Assembly: GCF_028737205.1 (NCBI RefSeq)
Contig: NZ_JAQZAL010000004.1
Coordinates: forward strand, 186,001-250,000
Reading direction: 5' to 3'
DNA: 64,000 bases
Source: Actinomycetospora lutea
GTDB taxonomy: Bacteria > Actinomycetota > Actinomycetes > Mycobacteriales > Pseudonocardiaceae
Part shown: piece by piece, positions 5,804-17,668 of the stretch
Layout of the letters: each line of letters starts with the position of its first letter
Position numbering within the stretch: the stretch's first letter is position 1
The notes under the pieces: model-generated
Database searches by the model: none
What the model was told of the DNA's origin: nothing
Seen by the model: the letters and a program-made list of their open reading frames with translations, nothing else
Program-made: the position numbers and the translations under genes

Positions 5804-6259
5804 ATGGACGAGCCACTGGAGGTCCCGGCAGTACCCGAGTCGTCGGCGCAGGACCGCGACCGGGCCGTCGGCGAACGGGAGGACGCCGCAGACGCCCGGG
5901 ACCGGGCGGCCGACGAGCGGGATGACGCCGCCGACCGGAGGGAGGCCGAGGCCGACCGTCGGGAGCGGCACGCCGACGCGCGCGAGCGACGGGCCGACGC
6001 ACGTGAGGCCGCCCTGGACGATCTGGCGCGAGCCAGCGGACTGGCGACCGTCGGGCGGTTCGGGCGCTCCGACGAGGCGCTGGCCCGCGCCGAGGACACG
6101 GTATCCCGGGCCCGGGAGCACATCGAACGGTCGCGCGAGGCGCTGCGCGCCGAGCGCCGGCGTGCCGACCGCGAGCAGGACGAGATCGAACGCGAGAGAC
6201 GGGCCTCGGAGCGCGAGATCGGCGCGCGCGACGTCGGGACCGTTGACGACCTCGCGTGA
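5804..6259 (+). CDS. Charged coiled-coil protein with RD-A-AD heptad repeats
   Basis: A 151-residue protein. The first half is an almost uninterrupted 7-residue repeat of the type RDRAADERDDAADRR (about residues 18-75). A short interruption (ASGLATVGRFGRSDEAL) and a second charged helix to about residue 140 follow. Such Arg/Asp/Ala repeats often precede GAF, ANTAR or GGDEF domains in actinobacteria, but here they stand alone. No membrane segment is present. ATG 5804 is preceded by GGTGGA. The role is unknown; it may be a long helical spacer or binding protein, or a detached N-terminus of a signalling protein from the ANTAR-rich region to its left. Confidence 0.55.
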   Translation: MDEPLEVPAVPESSAQDRDRAVGEREDAADARDRAADERDDAADRREAEADRRERHADARERRADAREAALDDLARASGLATVGRFGRSDEALARAEDTVSRAREHIERSREALRAERRRADREQDEIERERRASEREIGARDVGTVDDLA

Positions 6260-8214: not shown

Positions 8215-8652
8215 TCAGCGCCCGAGCGCGGCGTCGAGCGTGATCGTCGTCCCCGCGAGCGCCTTCGAGACGGGGCAGGTCTTCTCGGCGGTCGACGCCA
8301 GCTCCTGGAACCGCGCCTCGTCGACGCCGTCGACGTCGGCGCGCAGCGTCACCGCGATCCCGCTGATCTCGAAGCCACCGCCCGTGGCCGGCGAGAGCGT
8401 CACCTCGGCGCTGACGTCGATCGAGTTCGCGGTGAGGCCCTCGCCGCCGAGCACGCCGGAGAGGTTCATGGCGAGGCACGAGGAGTGCGCCGCGGCGATG
8501 AGCTCCTCGGGGCTGGTCTGGCCGTTCGGGTCCTCGGCGCGGGTCGGGAACGAGACGTTGAACTGGCCCGCGTTCGAGGAGTCCAGGGTCACGTGACCCT
8601 TCCCGTCCTGCAGACCGCCCTCCCAGTGGGTGGTCGCGTCGCGGCTCGGCAT
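8215..8652 (-). CDS. osmC: OsmC-family peroxiredoxin
   Basis: A 145-residue OsmC/Ohr-family enzyme that reduces organic hydroperoxides with a pair of cysteines. The two catalytic cysteines are visible at 59 (AAAHSSCLAM) and 126 (EKTCPVSKAL), with the preceding SPEEL motif. The N-terminal ATTHWEGGL pattern places it in the OsmC branch rather than Ohr. The ATG at 8652 follows a strong AGGAGG. It lies 28 bases downstream of the OhrR-type repressor gene on the same strand, so the two form a peroxide-inducible unit. Confidence 0.88.
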   Translation of the reverse strand: MPSRDATTHWEGGLQDGKGHVTLDSSNAGQFNVSFPTRAEDPNGQTSPEELIAAAHSSCLAMNLSGVLGGEGLTANSIDVSAEVTLSPATGGGFEISGIAVTLRADVDGVDEARFQELASTAEKTCPVSKALAGTTITLDAALGR

Positions 8653-8680
8653 CGTCGCCTCCTGGTGGCGTTCGGTGGGT

Positions 8681-9160
8681 TCAGCTGGCGGTCGACTCCC
8701 CGTCGACGTCGCGGAAGGCGATCGTCGACGCGGTGATCCTCCGGAGGAGCACGATGAGCTCGCGGCGCGCGCGGTCGTCGAGGCCGAGCGCGCAGCCGAT
8801 CGTGGCGGGCACGTGGGCGACCCGGCCCCGCAGCGCGCGACCGGCGTCGGTCAGGTGCACCGTGACGGTGCGCTCGTCGCGGGCCTCCCGGCGCCGCTCG
8901 ACGAAGCCGGTGCCCTCCAGCCGCTTGAGCAGCGGCGAGACGGTGCCGTAGTCGAGCGCCAGCGCGGCACCGACGTCCCGCACCGTCCGCGGCTCGGACT
9001 CCCACAGGATCAGGAGGACGAGGTACTGCGGGTAGGTCAGGCCCAGCTCGGCGAGCAGGGGCCGGTAGACGTCGGTGACCGCGCGGGACGCCGAGTAGAG
9101 CGCGAAGCACGCCTGCTCGGACAGCAGCAGGTCGTCCTCCGCGCCCTCGTCGGTGCTCAT
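8681..9160 (-). CDS. ohrR: MarR-family organic-peroxide sensor (OhrR type)
   Basis: A 159-residue winged-helix repressor. The N-terminal LLLSEQACFALYSASRAVTD carries the conserved reactive cysteine (Cys18) of OhrR, which is oxidised by organic hydroperoxides and releases DNA. The helix-turn-helix and wing are seen in TVRDVGAALALDYGTVSPLL and REARDERTVTVHLTDAGRAL. Gene order ohrR-osmC and a palindrome just upstream (9183-9200) support autoregulation. The pairing is with an OsmC-branch enzyme rather than a classical Ohr. Confidence 0.85.
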   Translation of the reverse strand: MSTDEGAEDDLLLSEQACFALYSASRAVTDVYRPLLAELGLTYPQYLVLLILWESEPRTVRDVGAALALDYGTVSPLLKRLEGTGFVERRREARDERTVTVHLTDAGRALRGRVAHVPATIGCALGLDDRARRELIVLLRRITASTIAFRDVDGESTAS

Positions 9161-9573: not shown

Positions 9574-10533
9574 TCACCCGGCGACGCCGGTGACCGGGAC
9601 ACCCGCCGGGGCCCCGAGCTCGGGCTCGAGATCGACGAGGTCGAACACGCGCATCGAGGCCGCCCGCGCGGCCGAGCAGGTCAGGGGCGTCGGTGAGGCC
9701 TCCCAGCGCTCGCGCACCACGACCCGCACCGGGCCGCGCTCCGGCCCGCCGTCGAGACGGACCGCCGTCGCGCCGTCCTCGCCCGCCACGACCCCGAGCA
9801 CGTGCAGCGCGTCCACGCGCGGTTCCTGGAGGATCAGCCGTGCGTGGTGCTGGGCGGCCTGCGCGGGCGCGGTGAGGAACGAGCGGCCGCGCACCCACAC
9901 CGTGTCCACCTCGCCCGCGGCGTAGCGCTCGGCCACCGCGACCGCCTCCGTGGCCGGCACGCGCCCGAGCACCAGCCCGTGGGGGAGCAGCACCACGTTG
10001 GCCGCGAAGCGGTCGCCGCCGGTGTGCGTGGTCTCCCAGGTGCGCTCCGGGTACGCGATCGCGAGCTCCGCGGCCACGGGGCGCCCGCGCATCGCGCAGC
10101 ACGCGTCGTGGCGGCCGTGCGCGCACACGAGGTAGACCGGCTCGGGCGACGGGGTCGTCACGGCCTCGACGTCGGCCAGCGCGGCCGGCAGGTCGTCGGG
10201 GGAAGCGACCCGGCCCCAGCGCACCGACTCGGCCCCCGGCGTCGTGTCGACGACGGCGAAGCGCCCGCGGTCGGCGAGGGGCTCCCCGCGCATCCGCGGG
10301 CGGCGGATCAGCTGGAAGCGCGCGCCGCGGGCACGGCAGAAGGCGTCGACGGCGTCGACGACCTCGGGCGCGTAGCCCGCGCCGCCGAGCGCCTGGTGCC
10401 CCCACGGCCCGGGGTGCTCGACGAGCAGCCAGCAGCGGGCGGGCGGCGCGGTCGCGACGAACGGGTCGTCGCGGTCCCGGGCGGCGTCCGAGCAGCGGAA
10501 GCTGGCCGCCCCGTCCGACTCGCTGGAGGTCAT
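9574..10533 (-). CDS. Sucrase/ferredoxin-like (Suc-Fer) family protein
   Basis: A 319-residue protein of the sucrase/ferredoxin-like family, a thioredoxin-fold relative of [2Fe-2S] ferredoxins. Visible marks are the N-terminal FRCSDAARDRDDP, the HPGPWG motif, the cysteine cluster CAHGRHDACCAMRG, and ETTHTGGDRFAAN. The ATG at 10533 is used because it sits directly after a TATGAC-like -10 element and the longer frame upstream adds nothing conserved. It begins 64 bases after the stop of the cupin-4 gene on the same strand. The biochemical role of the family is not established; a redox role is inferred from the cysteines. Confidence 0.8.
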   Translation of the reverse strand: MTSSESDGAASFRCSDAARDRDDPFVATAPPARCWLLVEHPGPWGHQALGGAGYAPEVVDAVDAFCRARGARFQLIRRPRMRGEPLADRGRFAVVDTTPGAESVRWGRVASPDDLPAALADVEAVTTPSPEPVYLVCAHGRHDACCAMRGRPVAAELAIAYPERTWETTHTGGDRFAANVVLLPHGLVLGRVPATEAVAVAERYAAGEVDTVWVRGRSFLTAPAQAAQHHARLILQEPRVDALHVLGVVAGEDGATAVRLDGGPERGPVRVVVRERWEASPTPLTCSAARAASMRVFDLVDLEPELGAPAGVPVTGVAG

Positions 10534-10597
10534 CCCCAAGTCATACCCCGCCCGGGCGCCGGTGGACACCCGCGGCGGGGGCGAGGTGAGGGTGACC

Positions 10598-11902
10598 TCA
10601 CTCCGGGACGAGCACGCCCTCCTTGAGCAGCCGCCGGACGACGACCGCGCCGTCCTCCGGGGCGAGCCCGGGCAGGTCCCCGGCGGTCGCCGGCCGCCCG
10701 TCGAGCAGCCGCGCGCAGGCGTCCCGCGTGCCGGCCGGGAGGGTGAGGGTGCGGTCGGCGAGCTCGAGGACGACGGCCTCGTCGGTCGTGCCGGCGCCGG
10801 TGCTCGGACGCAGCCGGTGGTGCAGGCCGCGCCGGAGCCGGACGACGGTCGTCGCGTCGGCGGAGGTCGCCGCGGCGGCCTGCACCAGCGGGGCGATCGC
10901 CTCGGGCCGGTTGCCCGTCCAGGCGCGGCGCCGCAGGCGCCGGGCGACCCGGTCGGCGCGCCCGGGGTCGGGCGCGGCGAGGGCCTCGGCGACCCGGGCG
11001 GCGACCGCCTCCACGTGCGGGGCGAGCGCTGCGGGGTCGGAGGCGTCGATGCCCAGCGGCAGCGAGCCGCGCAGCTCGGGGTCGGCGGTGAGCGCGTTGA
11101 CCAGCGCGTCCACGACCGCCCAGCGGGTGAGGACGTGCACGCCGATCGTGAGGTGCGCGCTGACCTCGCCCTGCGCCGTGGCGGAGTGCAGGTAGCCGCG
11201 CGGGAGGTAGAGGGCGTCGCCGGGCTCGAGGACCTCGTCGATCAGCGGCTCCTCGGCGGCCCGCGCGGCCACGGCCTCGGCGTGGTCGTTCCAGGGCTGG
11301 GAGCGCAGCGGGTCGGCGTGGACGGGCGCGTGGACGTGCCAGCGCTTGGTGCCCGCGACCTGCAGAACGAAGACGTCGTGGACGTCGTAGTGGGCGGAGA
11401 AGCCCTGCGAGGACGCCGGCGTGACGTAGGCGTTGGTCTGCGCGGGGTGCCCCAGCTCGGCCGCGAGGGCGGTGACGAGATCGGCGACCGGCGCCCAGGT
11501 GCGGTGCACGCCCTGCAGCACGACGGTGTGGCCCTCGGCGAACAGCGCGGCGACGCGGTCGTCCTGCACCTGGTCGGCCACCTCGGCGCCGACCCCGCCC
11601 TCACCGGTGAAGTGCCGGGAGTCGACGACGGTGCCCTGCTTGGCGATCCGCAGGAACGGGGTGCGCAGCCCGCGCCGGGAGAGCAGCTCGTCGACGGCGC
11701 CGAGGTCGAACAGGTCGCCGAACGCCGGCGGGTGGTCGGCGTGCTCGGGGTCGGTGTGCTTCGCCAGGTCCGCGGCGCGCGAGAGGCGGGCCTCCCGCCC
11801 CCAGGCGGCCGCGGCGAACTCGTCGAGGTCCCCGGCGACGAGACGCCGCAGCGCCGGGCGGTCCCGGGACCGCCCGGCGCCGGGGGACGACTCGGTCGTC
11901 AC
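10598..11902 (-). CDS. JmjC/cupin-4 family Fe(II)/2-oxoglutarate oxygenase
   Basis: A 434-residue cupin-4 protein, the family of RoxA (YcfD), MINA53 and NO66 that hydroxylate arginine or histidine in proteins. The metal ligands are readable: H171-x-D173 in SAHYDVHDVFVLQ and H239 in LPRGYLHSA, with the strand GTKRWHVH between. The C-terminal ~170 residues would form the helical dimerisation and winged-helix parts typical of these enzymes. The GTG at 11902 is chosen; GAGG lies 6 bases upstream, and the open frame further upstream is only the out-of-frame image of the repeat gene. It starts 7 bases after the stop of the repeat-peptide gene, so the two are almost certainly co-expressed. Confidence 0.85.
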   Translation of the reverse strand: MTTESSPGAGRSRDRPALRRLVAGDLDEFAAAAWGREARLSRAADLAKHTDPEHADHPPAFGDLFDLGAVDELLSRRGLRTPFLRIAKQGTVVDSRHFTGEGGVGAEVADQVQDDRVAALFAEGHTVVLQGVHRTWAPVADLVTALAAELGHPAQTNAYVTPASSQGFSAHYDVHDVFVLQVAGTKRWHVHAPVHADPLRSQPWNDHAEAVAARAAEEPLIDEVLEPGDALYLPRGYLHSATAQGEVSAHLTIGVHVLTRWAVVDALVNALTADPELRGSLPLGIDASDPAALAPHVEAVAARVAEALAAPDPGRADRVARRLRRRAWTGNRPEAIAPLVQAAAATSADATTVVRLRRGLHHRLRPSTGAGTTDEAVVLELADRTLTLPAGTRDACARLLDGRPATAGDLPGLAPEDGAVVVRRLLKEGVLVPE

Positions 11903-11909
11903 GATCGCC

Positions 11910-12212
11910 TCAGGCCCCGCCGTCGGCGCCACCGTCGGAGCCGCCGCCGCGGGCGCCACCGTCGGCCGGACCGTGCCCGGCAGCCCCGTCGGCACCGCCG
12001 TCCGCACCGCCGTCGGCGCCGCCGTCCGCACCGCCGTCCGCGCCCCCGTCGGCGCCGCCGTCCGCACCGCCGCCGGCGGCTCCGCCGTCGGCCGGGCCGT
12101 GACCCGCGCCGCCGTCCGCGCCCCCGTCGGCACCGCCGTCGGCGCCGCCGTCCGCACCGCCACCGGCGGCTCCGCCGTCGGCCGGGCCGTGGGTGATGTC
12201 GTCGTCGTTCAC
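11910..12212 (-). CDS. Gly-Ala-Asp repeat peptide, candidate substrate of cupin-4 enzyme
   Basis: A 100-residue peptide made almost entirely of ADGG tetrapeptides. After a short acidic head (MNDDDIT) there are three blocks of 30, 42 and 21 residues. Each block opens with HGPADGGA(A/R)GGG and continues as ADGG repeats. The GTG at 12212 is chosen over a GTG at 12269 because GGGAG lies 5 bases upstream and the block structure starts just after it. It has no signal peptide and no cysteine. It is immediately upstream of the cupin-4 oxygenase. Asp and His residues in repeated contexts are plausible hydroxylation targets, so I infer a modified repeat peptide. Alternatives are a structural glycine-rich protein or a calcium binder. 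Confidence 0.7.
   Translation of the reverse strand: MNDDDITHGPADGGAAGGGADGGADGGADGGADGGAGHGPADGGAAGGGADGGADGGADGGADGGADGGADGGADGAAGHGPADGGARGGGSDGGADGGA
11913..12191. repeat. Nested in-frame tandem repeat (12-bp units)
   Basis: The coding DNA of the repeat peptide is built from 12-base units encoding ADGG, grouped in three larger blocks that each begin with the codons for HGPADGG. The near-identity of units at DNA level suggests expansion by slippage, so copy number may differ between strains. Confidence 0.85.
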
Positions 12213-12396
12213 GTCGTCTCCCTGGAGATCGTCGTCGATCCCGGAGGTCCCGCGAGGTGTGCGGGCCACCCGGGAGGTGGTGGGTCGCGAGCACGCAGCT
12301 CCGACGACGCCAGCCGTACCCGGCGCGGCGTGATCTCACGCGCGGGGCCCCCGGTGGCGTGGTGCCGTCGCCGAGCCGCTGGCATGGTCTCTCGCC

Positions 12397-13167
12397 ATGA
12401 CCTCGGAGGGAACCGTCGGCACGCTCGTGCTCCTGCGCCACGGCCAGAGCGACTGGAACGAGAAGAACCTGTTCACCGGCTGGGTGGACGTCGCGCTCTC
12501 GGCCACGGGCGAGCAGGAGGCCCGCCGCGGCGGCGAGCTGCTCGCCGACGCCGGACTCCTGCCCGACCTGCTGCACACCTCGCTGCTGCGCCGCGCCATC
12601 AGCACGGCGAACATCGCCCTCGACGCCTGCGACCGCCACTGGATCCCGGTCCGGCGCGACTGGCGCCTGAACGAGCGGCACTACGGAGCCCTCCAGGGCA
12701 AGGACAAGAAGCAGACGATGGAGGAGTACGGCGAGGAGCAGTTCCAGATCTGGCGTCGCTCCTACGACACCCCGCCGCCACCGATCGACCCCGACGACCC
12801 GTACGCCCAGACCGGCGACCCCCGCTACGCCGACCTCGGCGACGCGATGCCGCGCACCGAGTGCCTCGCCGACGTGCTCGAGCGCCTGCTGCCCTACTGG
12901 CGGTCGGCGGTCGTGCCGGACCTGCGCGCCGGGCACACCGTGCTGGTCGCCGCGCACGGCAACTCGCTGCGCGCGGTGGTCAAGCACCTCGACGGCGTCG
13001 ACGACGCGACGATCGCCGGGCTCAACATCCCGACCGGTATCCCGCTGCGCTACGACCTCGAGGCCGGCGCCGACGGCGACCTGCGCCCGACCAACCCGGG
13101 CGGCACCTACCTCGATCCCGAGGCCGCGAAGGACGCCATCGCGGCGGTCGCGAACCAGGGTCGCTGA
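12397..13167 (+). CDS. gpmA: 2,3-bisphosphoglycerate-dependent phosphoglycerate mutase
   Basis: A 256-residue glycolytic enzyme interconverting 3- and 2-phosphoglycerate. The phosphohistidine motif [14 protein letters not shown] places catalytic His15, followed by [25 protein letters not shown] and the second histidine in [13 protein letters not shown]. Length and motifs match the dPGM family closely. It precedes senX3-regX3, as in mycobacteria, and is divergent from the repeat-peptide gene, leaving a 184-base shared promoter region. Confidence 0.95.
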
Positions 13168-13279
13168 CGCTGATCGGTGAACGGGGGCCGAACAGCAGGC
13201 CAACCCTGTCCCCCGGTGGCGTTGGACAGCTCACGAGCAGCGCACGGTCGGGGCCACGACGGCCCTACCATCGGAAGAT

Positions 13280-14566
13280 GTGACCGTCCCCGTGCTGGTG
13301 GCCGTCGTCGCGACGCTCGCGGCCGCGGCGATCGGCGCCGTCGCCGGGGCCGCCCTCGTGCGCTGGAAGCGGGACGAGCCGGCGCGCGATCGGGCCCGGG
13401 GCACCCGCGGCCCGACGGTGGCCGAGCTGCTCGCCCGGCTGGTGCGCCGCTCCCAGTCGGGCATCGCCGTCATCAACCGCTTCGGCGACGTCGTGCTCGC
13501 GAACGAGCGGGCGGAGGGCCTCGGCGCCGTGGTCGACGGCCGGCCCGACCCCCGGGTCGCGGCAGCGGCGGAGCGCGTCGCCGCCGGCGCGGAGCCCGCC
13601 GAGGTGGACCTCTCGCCCGCGACCCACCCGCCGGGCTCGACACCGCAGACGATCGTCGCCCACGTCCGCCCGCTCGGGGACGGCTTCGCGGTGGTCGACG
13701 CCACCGACACCTCCGCGGCGGTGCGGCTCGAGGCCGTGCGGCGCGACTTCGTCGCCAACGTCGGCCACGAGCTCAAGACGCCGGTCGGCGCGCTCGCCGT
13801 GCTCGCCGAGGCCGTGCTCGACGCCGACGACCCCGACGAGGTCGCCCACTTCGCCACCCGCATCCTCAACGAGTCCCACCGCCTGGGCGCCCTGGTCACC
13901 GAGCTCATCGCGCTGTCCCGCCTGCAGGGCGCGGAGAAGCTGCCCGAGCTCGTGCGGGTCGACGTCGACGAGGTGCTCGCCGAGGCGCTCAAGCGCGTGC
14001 GCGTGCCGGCCGAGGCGGCCAGCGCCGCGGGCACTGAGGAGTCCCCGGACCCGCGGGAGCGCTTCCTGCTCGACGCGCCGAGCGGCCTCGAGGTCGCCGG
14101 GGACCGCACGCTGCTCGTCACCGCGCTGTCCAACCTGCTCGAGAACGCCGTGGCGTACTCGCCCGAGGGCGGGTCGGTGTCGGTCCGCCGCCGCCGGCAG
14201 GGCGACCGGATCGAGATCTCGGTGACCGACCGGGGCATCGGCATCGCCCCGGAGCACCAGCAGCGCGTGTTCGAGCGCTTCTTCCGCGTCGATCCGGCCC
14301 GCTCCCGCGCCACGGGCGGCACCGGCCTCGGTCTCGCCATCGTCAAGCACGTCGCCGCCAACCACGGCGGCGAGGTGCGGCTGTGGAGCCAGCCCGGCGT
14401 CGGGTCGACGTTCACGCTGCGGGTCCCGGCGGCGCCCCCCGACGACGCCGACGACGACCTCGACGGCGACCTCGAGGGCGACACCGACCTCGCGGCCGAC
14501 CTGGCCCTCACCACGGCGGGGTCCGGACCGGACCCGGCCCCGTCCGCCCCCGGAGGTTCCCCATGA
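13280..14566 (+). CDS. senX3: Sensor histidine kinase SenX3
   Basis: A 428-residue histidine kinase with an N-terminal membrane helix (VLVAVVATLAAAAIGAVAGA), a PAS-like segment (SGIAVINRFGDVVLANE), the phosphoacceptor in FVANVGHELKTPVG (His163) and an ATPase domain with NLLENAVAYSPEGG and GTGLGLAIVKH. This matches SenX3, which controls the phosphate-starvation response with RegX3. The Asp-rich C-terminal tail is longer than usual. It starts with GTG at 13280, probably leaderless, and its stop overlaps the regX3 start in ATGA. Confidence 0.93.
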   Translation: MTVPVLVAVVATLAAAAIGAVAGAALVRWKRDEPARDRARGTRGPTVAELLARLVRRSQSGIAVINRFGDVVLANERAEGLGAVVDGRPDPRVAAAAERVAAGAEPAEVDLSPATHPPGSTPQTIVAHVRPLGDGFAVVDATDTSAAVRLEAVRRDFVANVGHELKTPVGALAVLAEAVLDADDPDEVAHFATRILNESHRLGALVTELIALSRLQGAEKLPELVRVDVDEVLAEALKRVRVPAEAASAAGTEESPDPRERFLLDAPSGLEVAGDRTLLVTALSNLLENAVAYSPEGGSVSVRRRRQGDRIEISVTDRGIGIAPEHQQRVFERFFRVDPARSRATGGTGLGLAIVKHVAANHGGEVRLWSQPGVGSTFTLRVPAAPPDDADDDLDGDLEGDTDLAADLALTTAGSGPDPAPSAPGGSP

Positions 14567-15279
14567 CCCGCGTGCTCATCGTCGAGGACGAGGAGTCCTT
14601 CGCCGACCCGCTGGCCTACCTGCTGCGCAAGGAGGGCTTCGAGACCTCGGTCGCGGGCACCGGCGCGGCGGCCCTCGACGACTTCGAGCGCCACGGCGCG
14701 GACATCGTCCTGCTCGACCTCATGCTGCCCGGCATGAGCGGCACGGACGTGTGCAAGGCGCTGCGCCAGCGCTCCACCGTACCGGTGATCATGGTGACGG
14801 CCCGCGACGCGGAGATCGACAAGGTGGTCGGCCTCGAGCTCGGCGCCGACGACTACGTCACCAAGCCGTACTCGGCCCGCGAGCTCATCGCCCGGGTGCG
14901 CGCCGTGCTGCGCCGCGGCCAGGACGGCGAGGGCGAGGGGGCGGCGCCGGGCGCGGGCGGCGAGCGCCAGCTGCTCGAGGCCGGCCCGATCCGCATGGAC
15001 GTCGACCGCCACGTGGTGACGCTCGAGTCCGACGGCCGCGGCGTCGAGGTCCCGCTGCCGCTCAAGGAGTTCGACCTCCTCGAGTACCTGCTGCGCAACG
15101 TCGGGCGGGTGCTCACCCGCGCCCAGCTCATCGACCGGGTCTGGGGCGCCGACTACGTCGGCGACACCAAGACCCTCGACGTCCACGTCAAGCGCCTGCG
15201 GGCCAAGCTCGAGCCCGAGCCGTCGGCGCCGCGGCACCTGGTCACGGTGCGGGGGCTGGGCTACAAGCTGGACGCCTGA
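14563..15279 (+). CDS. regX3: Response regulator RegX3
   Basis: A 238-residue OmpR/PhoB-type response regulator. The receiver carries the acidic cluster VEDEES, the phosphoacceptor Asp52 in DIVLLDLMLPGMSG and the conserved lysine in DDYVTKPYS. The winged-helix domain contains LTRAQLIDRVWG and GDTKTLDVHVKRLRAKLE. It pairs with SenX3 through a 4-bp overlap and would bind phosphate-regulon promoters. A short Gly/Ala/Glu linker (GEGEGAAPGAGGERQ) joins the domains. Confidence 0.94.
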   Translation: MTRVLIVEDEESFADPLAYLLRKEGFETSVAGTGAAALDDFERHGADIVLLDLMLPGMSGTDVCKALRQRSTVPVIMVTARDAEIDKVVGLELGADDYVTKPYSARELIARVRAVLRRGQDGEGEGAAPGAGGERQLLEAGPIRMDVDRHVVTLESDGRGVEVPLPLKEFDLLEYLLRNVGRVLTRAQLIDRVWGADYVGDTKTLDVHVKRLRAKLEPEPSAPRHLVTVRGLGYKLDA

Positions 15280-16300: not shown

Positions 16301-17668
16301 GTGAACAGGGACGACGGGCCCCGACCAGGCACCCAGCGCAGCGTGGCCGAGCTGCTGGCGGCCTACAGCGCGGAGTCCCAGCAGCCCCGCCGTCGCCGCA
16401 CCGAGCCCGACGACGCCGCGGCCGCCGGGATCGCCGGCCAGGAGCCGGGGGGCGGGTACGCCTACCGCGCGCCCGACCCGGCCCCGCCCGCGACCGGTGG
16501 CCACGACACGTCCTACGACACGTCCTACGACACCTCCTACGAGCCCCGCGGCTACGACACCGGGGGCTATGACACCAGGGGCTACGACACCAGGGCCTAC
16601 GACACCGGCGGGTACGACAGCGGCTCCGCGTACGGGGCGGGCCACGGGGCGGGCTACGGGTCCGACCCCGGGGGCGGCCAGGACCCGTACGGCACGGGCT
16701 ACGAGCCCTACGGCGCCGGCTACGACGGCCAGGGCTACGGCAACCCGCAGTACGACGGGCAGGGGTACGGCGGCGGCCAGGGGTACGGGTCACCGGGCTT
16801 CGGTGGCCAGGGGTACGGCGGTCCCGCGCCGCGCAACGGCGGGGCCACCGACTACGCGCCGCGCGACCCGTGGGCGCAGTCGCCCGCCGCGCCGCCGGCC
16901 CCGCCCGCCCCGTCCGGGCCGCCGATGCCGCCGCCCGGGCGCCCGCCCGCACCGCAGGCGCCCCCGGCCGGCCCGCCGGCGACCGGCACCCAGGCCTTCG
17001 GCGCACCGCCGCGGCCGCCGTCGCCCCAGGTGCCCCTGACGCCGCAGGCCCCGCGGGTGGTCCCCGGTTCCGCGGGTCCGGGCGTGCCCGCCGCCCGCGA
17101 CGGCGGCCCGTCGACCGCCGTGTCGCCCGCGACCGTGCCCGGCGAGCACGACGACCGGGGCGGCCCGCCGACCGCGGCGTCCGCCATGGCGCGCCCCGAC
17201 CTCGACGACGACATCCACGACGACCTCGACGAGCGCGATGACGACCGGTTCGACGACGAGCGCTTCGACGACGAGCGTTTCGACGACGAGCGGGACGACG
17301 CCCCGGCCGGGCTCGGGCGCGCGCCCGGGCGGACGCGGTTCTCCGACGACCTCGAGGACGAGGAGTACGACGACCTCGAGGACGACGAGCGCGACGCGCC
17401 CCGCAGCTCGGCGCGCGACTGGGCGGTGATGATCGTCCAGCTGGTGCTCGGGGCCCTGCTCGGCGCCGTGCTGTGGACGGTCTTCTCCTACCTGTGGCAG
17501 GAGCAACCGGTGGTCGCGCTGGTGCTCGCCGCCGCGGCCACCACCGGCCTCGTGTTCGGTGTGCGCGCGCTGCGCAAGTCCGACGACCTGCAGACCACGG
17601 TGCTCGCGGTCGTCGTCGGGCTGGTCGTCACGGTGTCCCCGGCCGCGATCGTGCTGCTGAGCCGCTGA
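16301..17668 (+). CDS. Membrane protein with Tyr/Gly-rich disordered N-terminus (Rv0497-like)
   Basis: A 455-residue protein starting with the conserved TQRSVAELLAAYSAES, then ~300 residues of low complexity. This region has a YDT repeat (SYDTSYDTSYEPRGYDTGGY), Gln-Gly-Tyr repeats, a Pro-rich stretch and FDDERFDDERFDDER repeats. Three C-terminal membrane helices follow (WAVMIVQLVLGALLGAVLW and two more). The ends resemble Rv0497, located at the same place beside ppx in mycobacteria; the long disordered part is specific to this lineage. Function unknown. Confidence 0.75.
   Translation: MNRDDGPRPGTQRSVAELLAAYSAESQQPRRRRTEPDDAAAAGIAGQEPGGGYAYRAPDPAPPATGGHDTSYDTSYDTSYEPRGYDTGGYDTRGYDTRAYDTGGYDSGSAYGAGHGAGYGSDPGGGQDPYGTGYEPYGAGYDGQGYGNPQYDGQGYGGGQGYGSPGFGGQGYGGPAPRNGGATDYAPRDPWAQSPAAPPAPPAPSGPPMPPPGRPPAPQAPPAGPPATGTQAFGAPPRPPSPQVPLTPQAPRVVPGSAGPGVPAARDGGPSTAVSPATVPGEHDDRGGPPTAASAMARPDLDDDIHDDLDERDDDRFDDERFDDERFDDERDDAPAGLGRAPGRTRFSDDLEDEEYDDLEDDERDAPRSSARDWAVMIVQLVLGALLGAVLWTVFSYLWQEQPVVALVLAAAATTGLVFGVRALRKSDDLQTTVLAVVVGLVVTVSPAAIVLLSR

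What the first reader, a model, noticed from the sequence alone, without database searches (positions are those of the whole stretch)
9574..12212. Repeat peptide, cupin-4 oxygenase and Suc-Fer protein as a candidate peptide-modification system
Three leftward genes are packed together: a 100-residue peptide of HGPADGG/ADGG repeats, a JmjC/cupin-4 oxygenase with intact H171-x-D173...H239 starting 7 bases after it, and 64 bases on a cysteine-rich sucrase/ferredoxin-like protein. Cupin-4 enzymes are known protein hydroxylases (RoxA on ribosomal L16; MINA53 and NO66 on histidines). A multi-repeat peptide directly upstream of such an enzyme looks like a multi-core substrate, with Asp, His or Arg as targets and the Suc-Fer protein as a possible redox partner. 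I know of no described system of this composition; the link is inferred from gene order and chemistry.
Basis: partly seen in the sequence, partly recalled or inferred. Interest (0 to 1): 0.85.

Follow-up and report, generated by a model that had tools for sequence, protein, structure and literature searches.

The report
Repeat-peptide oxygenase cassette of actinobacteria
Three neighbouring genes - an aspartate-rich repeat peptide, an iron oxygenase and an iron-sulphur-type protein - stay together across many actinobacteria, which suggests an undescribed system that hydroxylates a peptide at many sites.

Summary
The window is from Actinomycetospora. In a tree of 103 actinobacterial cupin-4 proteins, all 78 rows with an upstream Asp-rich repeat peptide fall in one clade of 87. 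That clade's other 9 rows are 4 contig ends and 5 scored without; one of the 5 does have a peptide, found by eye. The 16 rows outside have none. A sucrase/ferredoxin-like (Suc-Fer) gene follows the oxygenase in 69 of 80 peptide loci; no other neighbour recurs widely. Two peptides used as queries hit only beside this oxygenase or at a contig end, one chance hit aside. Most peptides share a short leader (L-x-D-[DE]-[DE]-I-x-T); cores vary but always contain Asp, never Cys, and rarely Lys. Third-codon-position changes dominate in 13 sister pairs (74/59/327), so the peptide is translated and constrained. Best reading: a leader-guided, RiPP-like system in which the cupin-4 oxygenase hydroxylates repeated Asp residues. 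His and Arg are unlikely general targets. The chemistry, the Suc-Fer role and the biological function are inferred, not shown. I found no description in the open-licence papers searched.

The parts
11910..12212 (-). Repeat precursor-like peptide, 100 aa (M)NDDDITHGPADGG...ADGGA, GTG start, stop 11912-11910
   Evidence: open frame, aligned Shine-Dalgarno and start in the genus, third-position substitution bias in sister pairs
12192..12212 (-). Leader segment of the peptide (MNDDDIT), resembling the L-x-D-[DE]-[DE]-I-x-T leader of relatives
   Evidence: motif in 69 of 79 peptides by a strict pattern
11913..12191 (-). Repetitive core of the peptide (HGPADGG and ADGG units; 16 of the 19 Asp lie here)
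12218..12223 (-). Shine-Dalgarno-like AGGGAG, 5 bases before the GTG
   Evidence: aligned AGGAG-type site in the genus
10598..11902 (-). Cupin-4 / JmjC_2 Fe(II)/2-oxoglutarate oxygenase, 434 aa, H171-x-D173...H239
9574..10533 (-). Sucrase/ferredoxin-like (Suc-Fer) protein, 319 aa, invariant C14, C137, C145, C146, H170, C286

Best explanation
A three-gene, RiPP-like system. The small gene makes a precursor with a short acidic leader (L-x-D-[DE]-[DE]-I-x-T) and a long repetitive core of small residues with Asp mostly every 2-4 positions. The cupin-4 (JmjC) oxygenase recognises the leader and, using Fe(II), 2-oxoglutarate and O2, hydroxylates core Asp residues one after another, probably at the beta carbon. 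The Suc-Fer protein probably supplies electrons or keeps the oxygenase iron ferrous during the many turnovers. The product is a polyhydroxylated acidic peptide. With no widely conserved protease or transporter beside it, it more likely acts inside the cell, or after release by general proteases, for example as a hard-metal (Fe or Ca) ligand. Shown: gene set, translation, linkage, leader/core pattern, intact oxygenase site. Inferred: substrate relation, Asp as target, beta-hydroxylation, Suc-Fer role, function.
For: Cupin clade of 87 rows (branch support 97): 78 with peptide, 4 contig ends, 5 scored without, of which L040 has one by eye; 0 of 16 outside. Same criterion upstream of other ORFs: 10 of 668. 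Reverse searches: 16 of 16 hit genomes beside the cupin; 17 of 19, the others a contig end and a chance antisense hit. Suc-Fer next in 69 of 80 peptide loci. No other widely shared neighbour in 36 loci. In-frame constraint 74/59/327 in 13 pairs. Leader motif 69 of 79, core variable. Asp, Gly, Ala in 79 of 79 cores, Cys in 0, Lys in 12. HxD...H and the 2OG-site Lys invariant in 20 of 20. JmjC hydroxylases act on RiPP precursors elsewhere: PbsQ/BipG on ornithine (passages). FIH can hydroxylate Asp (passage).
Against: No modification has been observed. Asp is also what a merely acidic peptide would contain. Known relatives of this enzyme hydroxylate His or Arg of ribosomal proteins. No widely shared leader protease or exporter and no RRE hit was found. 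The leader motif is missing or altered in a subclade (L038, L054, L055, L057). Suc-Fer was not found in 9 of 78 peptide loci with sequence downstream. 2OG oxygenases do not strictly need a redox partner.
Confidence: 0.6

Rival explanations
1. The cupin-4 enzyme is a ribosomal oxygenase like YcfD, MINA53 or NO66. The acidic peptide is not a substrate but a partner, inhibitor or translational coupler in the same operon.
Against: A coupler needs no 9-37 Asp per peptide or in-frame constraint. Cupin-4s outside the clade do without the peptide (16 of 16). The leader is mostly conserved while the core sequence changes.
Confidence: 0.12
2. The oxygenase acts on the peptide but the outcome is not simple Asp hydroxylation: for example oxidation to aminomalonate, backbone cleavage after hydroxylation, or hydroxylation of Asn, His or Arg in some cores.
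For: Asp to aminomalonate by an oxygenase pair is mentioned in a passage of PMC13097080. Oxidative backbone cleavage by a HEXXH enzyme in a RiPP pathway is the title of a preprint seen only in a listing (PMC12636437). Some cores are rich in other groups (YGPRD in L076, DENLD and EHSQD in L094).
Against: As far as the passages and listing show, those cases use another enzyme family or two oxygenases; the linked cassette has a single oxygenase and no second one recurs beside it.
Confidence: 0.15
3. The peptide is a stand-alone acidic, disordered protein (metal buffer or protectant). The oxygenase and Suc-Fer are linked only by shared iron or oxygen regulation.
For: Composition is that of a disordered acidic polymer. 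Two of the three genes encode likely iron proteins.
Against: Co-inheritance over 27 family labels with no other widely shared gene, and no orphan peptide gene in the reverse searches.
Confidence: 0.1
4. The repeat is a neutral GC-rich minisatellite and the open frame is a by-product.
For: High-GC DNA with 12-base repeats; repeat length differs between species.
Against: 327 of 460 substitutions at third codon positions in pairs not chosen by peptide identity, and 12 of 13 alignments with every aligned base in the same codon position; aligned start and Shine-Dalgarno; similar leaders with unrelated repeats.
Confidence: 0.02

Closest known systems
Cupin-4 / JmjC_2 ribosomal oxygenases: YcfD (RoxA), Rhodothermus YcfD-like, MINA53, NO66
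   Same: PF08007 domain, HxD...H site, 2OG-site Lys, and a NO66/MINA53-like full-length architecture
   Different: Those act on ribosomal proteins; this clade is tied to a repeat peptide and a Suc-Fer gene. Its substrate is not tested.
Biphenomycin-type RiPP clusters (PbsQ, BpmG, BipG JmjC/cupin hydroxylases)
   Same: A JmjC/cupin oxygenase hydroxylating a side chain (ornithine) of a ribosomal precursor (passages)
   Different: Those clusters hold MNIO, B12-radical SAM, arginase-type and TldD-type enzymes and an aromatic core motif; here there is one oxygenase, an Asp-rich repeat core and no such recurring partners
RiPP systems with Asp hydroxylation: SmaO/SmaX graspetide cluster, PesHI nitrilobacillin cluster
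   Same: Hydroxylation of a precursor Asp, from passages
   Different: PesHI is an MNIO with partner; SmaO/SmaX belong to a graspetide cluster. Here a cupin-4, many Asp per precursor and no recurring ligase.
Cupin-4 genes with an NHLP domain in sponge symbiont clusters
   Same: A cupin-4 enzyme in a predicted RiPP cluster, as noted in one passage
   Different: NHLP precursors are a named domain family; the seven peptides scanned here reach no Pfam or NCBIfam cut-off
Apd1 / Suc_Fer-like thioredoxin-type [2Fe-2S] proteins
   Same: PF06999 match, invariant Cys and His
   Different: Apd1 has a 2Cys2His pocket (passage; its place in this family is recalled); here one His (H170) and five Cys are invariant and the fourth residue after H170 is Asp in 95%

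Membership tests
Cupin-4 / JmjC_2 (PF08007) 2OG oxygenases | Profile match above the curated cut-off | tested here: met
   97.3 bits, cut-off 22
Cupin-4 / JmjC_2 (PF08007) 2OG oxygenases | HxD...H metal triad and 2OG-site Lys | tested here: met
   Invariant in 20 of 20; the Lys aligns with NO66. Its 2OG role is recalled.
Cupin-4 / JmjC_2 (PF08007) 2OG oxygenases | Hydroxylation of a ribosomal protein (known characterised members) | not testable with these tools
   Needs biochemistry
RiPP | Short ribosomal precursor gene beside a modifying enzyme | tested here: met
   that the enzyme modifies it is inferred
RiPP | Conserved leader with a variable core | tested here: met
   Leader motif 69 of 79 by strict pattern; core repeats differ widely. 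A subclade lacks the motif.
RiPP | Post-translational modification of the core | not testable with these tools
   Needs mass spectrometry
RiPP | Dedicated protease and/or exporter (common, not universal) | tested here: not met
   No neighbour besides Suc-Fer shared by more than 4 of 36 loci, antisense frames aside, with about 5-8 kb per side where the contig allowed
RiPP | RiPP recognition element (common, not universal) | tested here: inconclusive
   No Pfam hit for three oxygenase C-terminal parts; C-terminal part of the model at pLDDT 64-90 per ten residues
Graspetides | ATP-grasp ligase in the locus | tested here: not met
   No recurring neighbour besides cupin-4 and Suc-Fer; Lys in only 12 of 79 cores
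Proteusins / Nif11-NHLP RiPPs | NHLP or Nif11 precursor domain | tested here: not met
   No such Pfam or NCBIfam hit for seven precursors
Suc_Fer-like / Apd1 | Profile match above cut-off | tested here: met
   58.4 bits, cut-off 34.9
Suc_Fer-like / Apd1 | Two-Cys two-His [2Fe-2S] ligands | tested here: inconclusive
   Only one His is fully invariant, with five Cys; the cluster itself is not testable here

The most novel reading that the evidence does not exclude
A phylum-wide, undescribed class of leader-guided peptides in which one cupin-4 oxygenase turns a repeat of about 10-35 Asp residues into a poly-hydroxyaspartate ribbon. A dedicated Suc-Fer protein keeps the iron ferrous. The product works as a genetically encoded intracellular chelator of hard metals. 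Repeat number and spacing would set the metal capacity.
Probability: 0.25. Interest if true: 0.9.

Novelty: new variant of a known kind. Interest (0 to 1): 0.78.

Why it matters
If right, it is a new RiPP-like class, widespread in actinobacteria, built from only three genes. The seven peptides scanned reach no Pfam or NCBIfam model, so annotation by family would pass it over. It would give the cupin-4 family a peptide substrate besides ribosomal proteins. It would also offer a simple natural system for multi-site Asp hydroxylation, with cores of many sequences to compare, and a candidate job for a Suc-Fer protein. The prediction (+16 Da steps on Asp) can be tested directly.

Tried and rejected
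His or Arg as the general target: rejected, as they are missing from 33 and 37 of 79 cores. A larger gene cluster: rejected; among 36 neighbourhoods (33 of the clade, plus L142, L143 and L153, which lack the repeat peptide) only cupin-4 (36) and Suc-Fer (27) recur, other groups being antisense frames or shared by 4 loci (groups of fewer than 4 were not printed). A fused peptide-oxygenase: none by the script's criterion. A plasmid-borne system: 135 plasmid records match, none over 80% of the query; the 20 listed are at 36.2% identity or less. An 18-base pattern for DGGADG was too loose: all 61 genomes matched and the list was cut, so I used peptide queries. Rfam gave nothing in the window. A conserved regulatory box upstream: by eye the genus alignment shows mainly the Shine-Dalgarno and start. 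Suc-Fer: no solved structure by sequence. A below-cut-off Pfam hit of one precursor (L067) to PF14406, Bacteroidetes ribosomal peptides (11.7 bits, cut-off 25, E 0.34), I take as chance. The oxygenase model is weak (mean pLDDT 59, pTM 0.44) and its rmsd to the 11 best NO66/MINA53 chains is 13.7-15.9 A over 294-345 residues, so it supports the fold only.

Criteria changed during work. The first peptide test (Asp at least 15%) missed clear peptides. The second (Asp at least 11% and a repeated 4-mer) still missed overlapping ones. The third widened the position limit. Background was rerun each time: 14, 10 and 10 of 668; it includes spurious frames. L040 was scored without a peptide by script and counted as having one after reading its frames. 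A first codon-position count (8/5/90, four pairs) chose pairs by peptide identity, which favours silent changes; I replaced it, where pairs are chosen by oxygenase identity (75% or more) and aligned as DNA. Suc-Fer presence means a tblastn match to the window's protein within 900 bases; more distant relatives could be missed.
Full report
What is there. The window lies in a 6.5 Mb Actinomycetospora genome; the genus is inferred from relatives that the search labels same genus and whose contigs match named Actinomycetospora records in length. On the minus strand, a 100-residue peptide gene (12212-11910) is followed after 7 bases by a cupin-4 oxygenase gene (11902-10598) and after 64 more by a Suc-Fer gene (10533-9574). 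The oxygenase matches PF08007 and the last protein PF06999; the peptide matches nothing in Pfam or NCBIfam.

The peptide is real. Its array is the strongest tandem repeat in the window, and a DGGADGGA codon pattern has 9 hits in the assembly, all in this gene. I paired peptide genes by the identity of their oxygenases alone (13 pairs, 75% or more) and aligned them as DNA: substitutions at codon positions 1, 2 and 3 number 74, 59 and 327, and in 12 of 13 pairs every aligned base keeps its codon position. The window against its nearest relative gives 2, 3 and 19. The start codon and Shine-Dalgarno line up in the 16 genus members aligned. A neutral repeat would not behave so.

The three genes travel together. 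I collected cupin-4 matches of P0002 from three searches: nine loci of named genomes, 61 related genomes (39 with a match) and 396 genomes across the phylum (59 with a match). Nearly all matches were fetched with flanks. Of 105 loci examined, 79 passed a scripted test for an Asp-rich repetitive peptide upstream, 22 failed and 4 were contig ends. The same test upstream of other long ORFs passed in 10 of 668. In a maximum-likelihood tree of 103 of these proteins (quick method, SH-aLRT, midpoint root for drawing), one group of 87 (support 97) has 78 with, 5 without and 4 at contig ends; the 16 outside have none. Of the five, L040 does have a peptide (LRDEDITTTV...) on reading its frames. L059 has an Asp-rich but barely repetitive ORF. 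L103, L111 and L112 have none and, by their long branches (1.2-1.8), their place is unsure. Peptide-bearing loci span 27 family labels by my reading, so this is not a genus feature; but it is patchy, as most of the 396 genomes have no match at all.

The reverse also holds. A Pseudonocardia peptide (L010) used as query hit 16 of 61 genomes, each next to the cupin-4 found. A peptide of another class (L100) hit 19 of 396 genomes: 17 beside a cupin-4, one at a contig end, and one marginal hit (E 1e-3) antisense to other genes. Both searches missed many known peptides, so they test specificity only. A leader-plus-Asp-core pattern over 700 kb (window and 41 fetched loci, all chosen around cupins) gave 20 hits, all at cassettes.

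Suc-Fer follows the oxygenase in 69 of the 80 peptide loci (9 without, 2 contig ends). From the cupin stop to the start of the aligned Suc-Fer stretch is -16 to 153 bases (n = 69). It is also beside 2 of the 16 outside cupins. Clustering of ORFs in 36 neighbourhoods, three of them without the repeat peptide, found cupin-4 in 36 and Suc-Fer in 27; apart from antisense frames the next group reached 4 loci. So the shared unit is three genes, with no widely shared protease, transporter, ligase or regulator.

Leader and core. A strict pattern for the acidic leader matches 69 of 79 peptides. The acidic positions are fixed by the pattern itself; Thr at +2 in 59 of 69 and a bulky aliphatic at -5 are not. 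Six of the ten misses carry variants on reading (such as LTDADIETV, ALDDSDIT, ITDNDIT). L038, L054, L055 and L057 have lost or changed it, which counts against a universal leader; they group together in the tree, with L059. Cores differ strongly: DGGADGGA, DGDATDADGTDA, SADGVDQG-YGPRDAGGG (L076), EDDENLDAPGEHSQDTGDE (L094), DPAG (L039). Asp, Gly and Ala occur in 79 of 79 cores; Cys in none, Lys in 12, Arg in 42, His in 46. Asp is followed by Gly, Ala, Ser or Thr in 92% of cases and lies mostly 2, 3 or 4 residues from the next. Asp is thus the only reactive side chain common to all.

The oxygenase. HxD...H and the Lys of the 2OG site (role recalled) are invariant in 20 of 20. The solved proteins matched by its profile are NO66, MINA53, a Rhodothermus YcfD-like enzyme, YxbC and YcfD. 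A weak AlphaFold model (pLDDT 59, pTM 0.44) still ranks NO66 and MINA53 first over its whole length. An active Fe(II)/2OG hydroxylase is expected.

The Suc-Fer protein. C14, C137, C145, C146, H170 and C286 are invariant in 74 of 74. Apd1, which I recall as a member of this family, has a 2Cys2His [2Fe-2S] pocket (passage of PMC11126956). Here the position four after H170 is Asp in 95%, so the ligands probably differ. An electron-supply role is an inference.

Known systems. JmjC or cupin enzymes do hydroxylate RiPP precursors: PbsQ and BipG act on ornithine in biphenomycin-type clusters (passages of PMC12257519 and PMC12707348). Asp hydroxylation of precursors is known from other enzymes (passages of PMC13097080 and PMC13060819). 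Asp hydroxylation by FIH is reviewed in PMC4543633 (passages). Cupin-4 genes have been seen with an NHLP domain (passage of PMC9426513), and a Nif11/cupin cluster is named in PMC10783134 (passage). No paper describing this three-gene set turned up in searches, which cover only open-licence PMC papers and whose long lists I saw only in part. A decRiPPter paper (PMC7794033) does not mention cupin or JmjC in its main text. PMC12186529 was not held.

Verdict. By build it resembles a RiPP system, and I call it RiPP-like, since modification itself is untested and no shared protease or exporter was found. The most likely chemistry is repeated Asp hydroxylation. My estimate that the peptide is the oxygenase's substrate is about 0.8; that Asp is the hydroxylated residue, about 0.65.

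Noticed in passing
L116 and L117, just upstream of the cupin: A more distant cupin-4 with a Suc-Fer neighbour has a short non-repeat peptide; both share VDRGKANGA, and L117 ends ADNDGND, which an earlier listing also shows for L116: perhaps a second, single-core type of the same system.
   Followed up: partly
L113 (G022, same family as the window): Its cupin and repeat type group with those of other classes in the phylum, which suggests horizontal transfer of the cassette.
   Followed up: no
L059 (G197): Asp- and Gln-rich upstream ORF with little repetition and no Suc-Fer found: a possible decaying or diverged precursor.
   Followed up: no
window 12397-15279: Phosphoglycerate mutase, sensor kinase and response regulator genes (look like the gpm-senX3-regX3 set, names recalled) beside the cassette; the mutase is beside it in the genus loci, except L025 on a short contig.
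   Followed up: partly
window 8215-9160: OsmC/Ohr-like protein next to a MarR/OhrR-like regulator (by eye, recalled), a likely organic peroxide pair.
   Followed up: no
window 5854-6007 and 16503-16660: Other tandem repeats of 12-42 bases in this GC-rich window.
   Followed up: no
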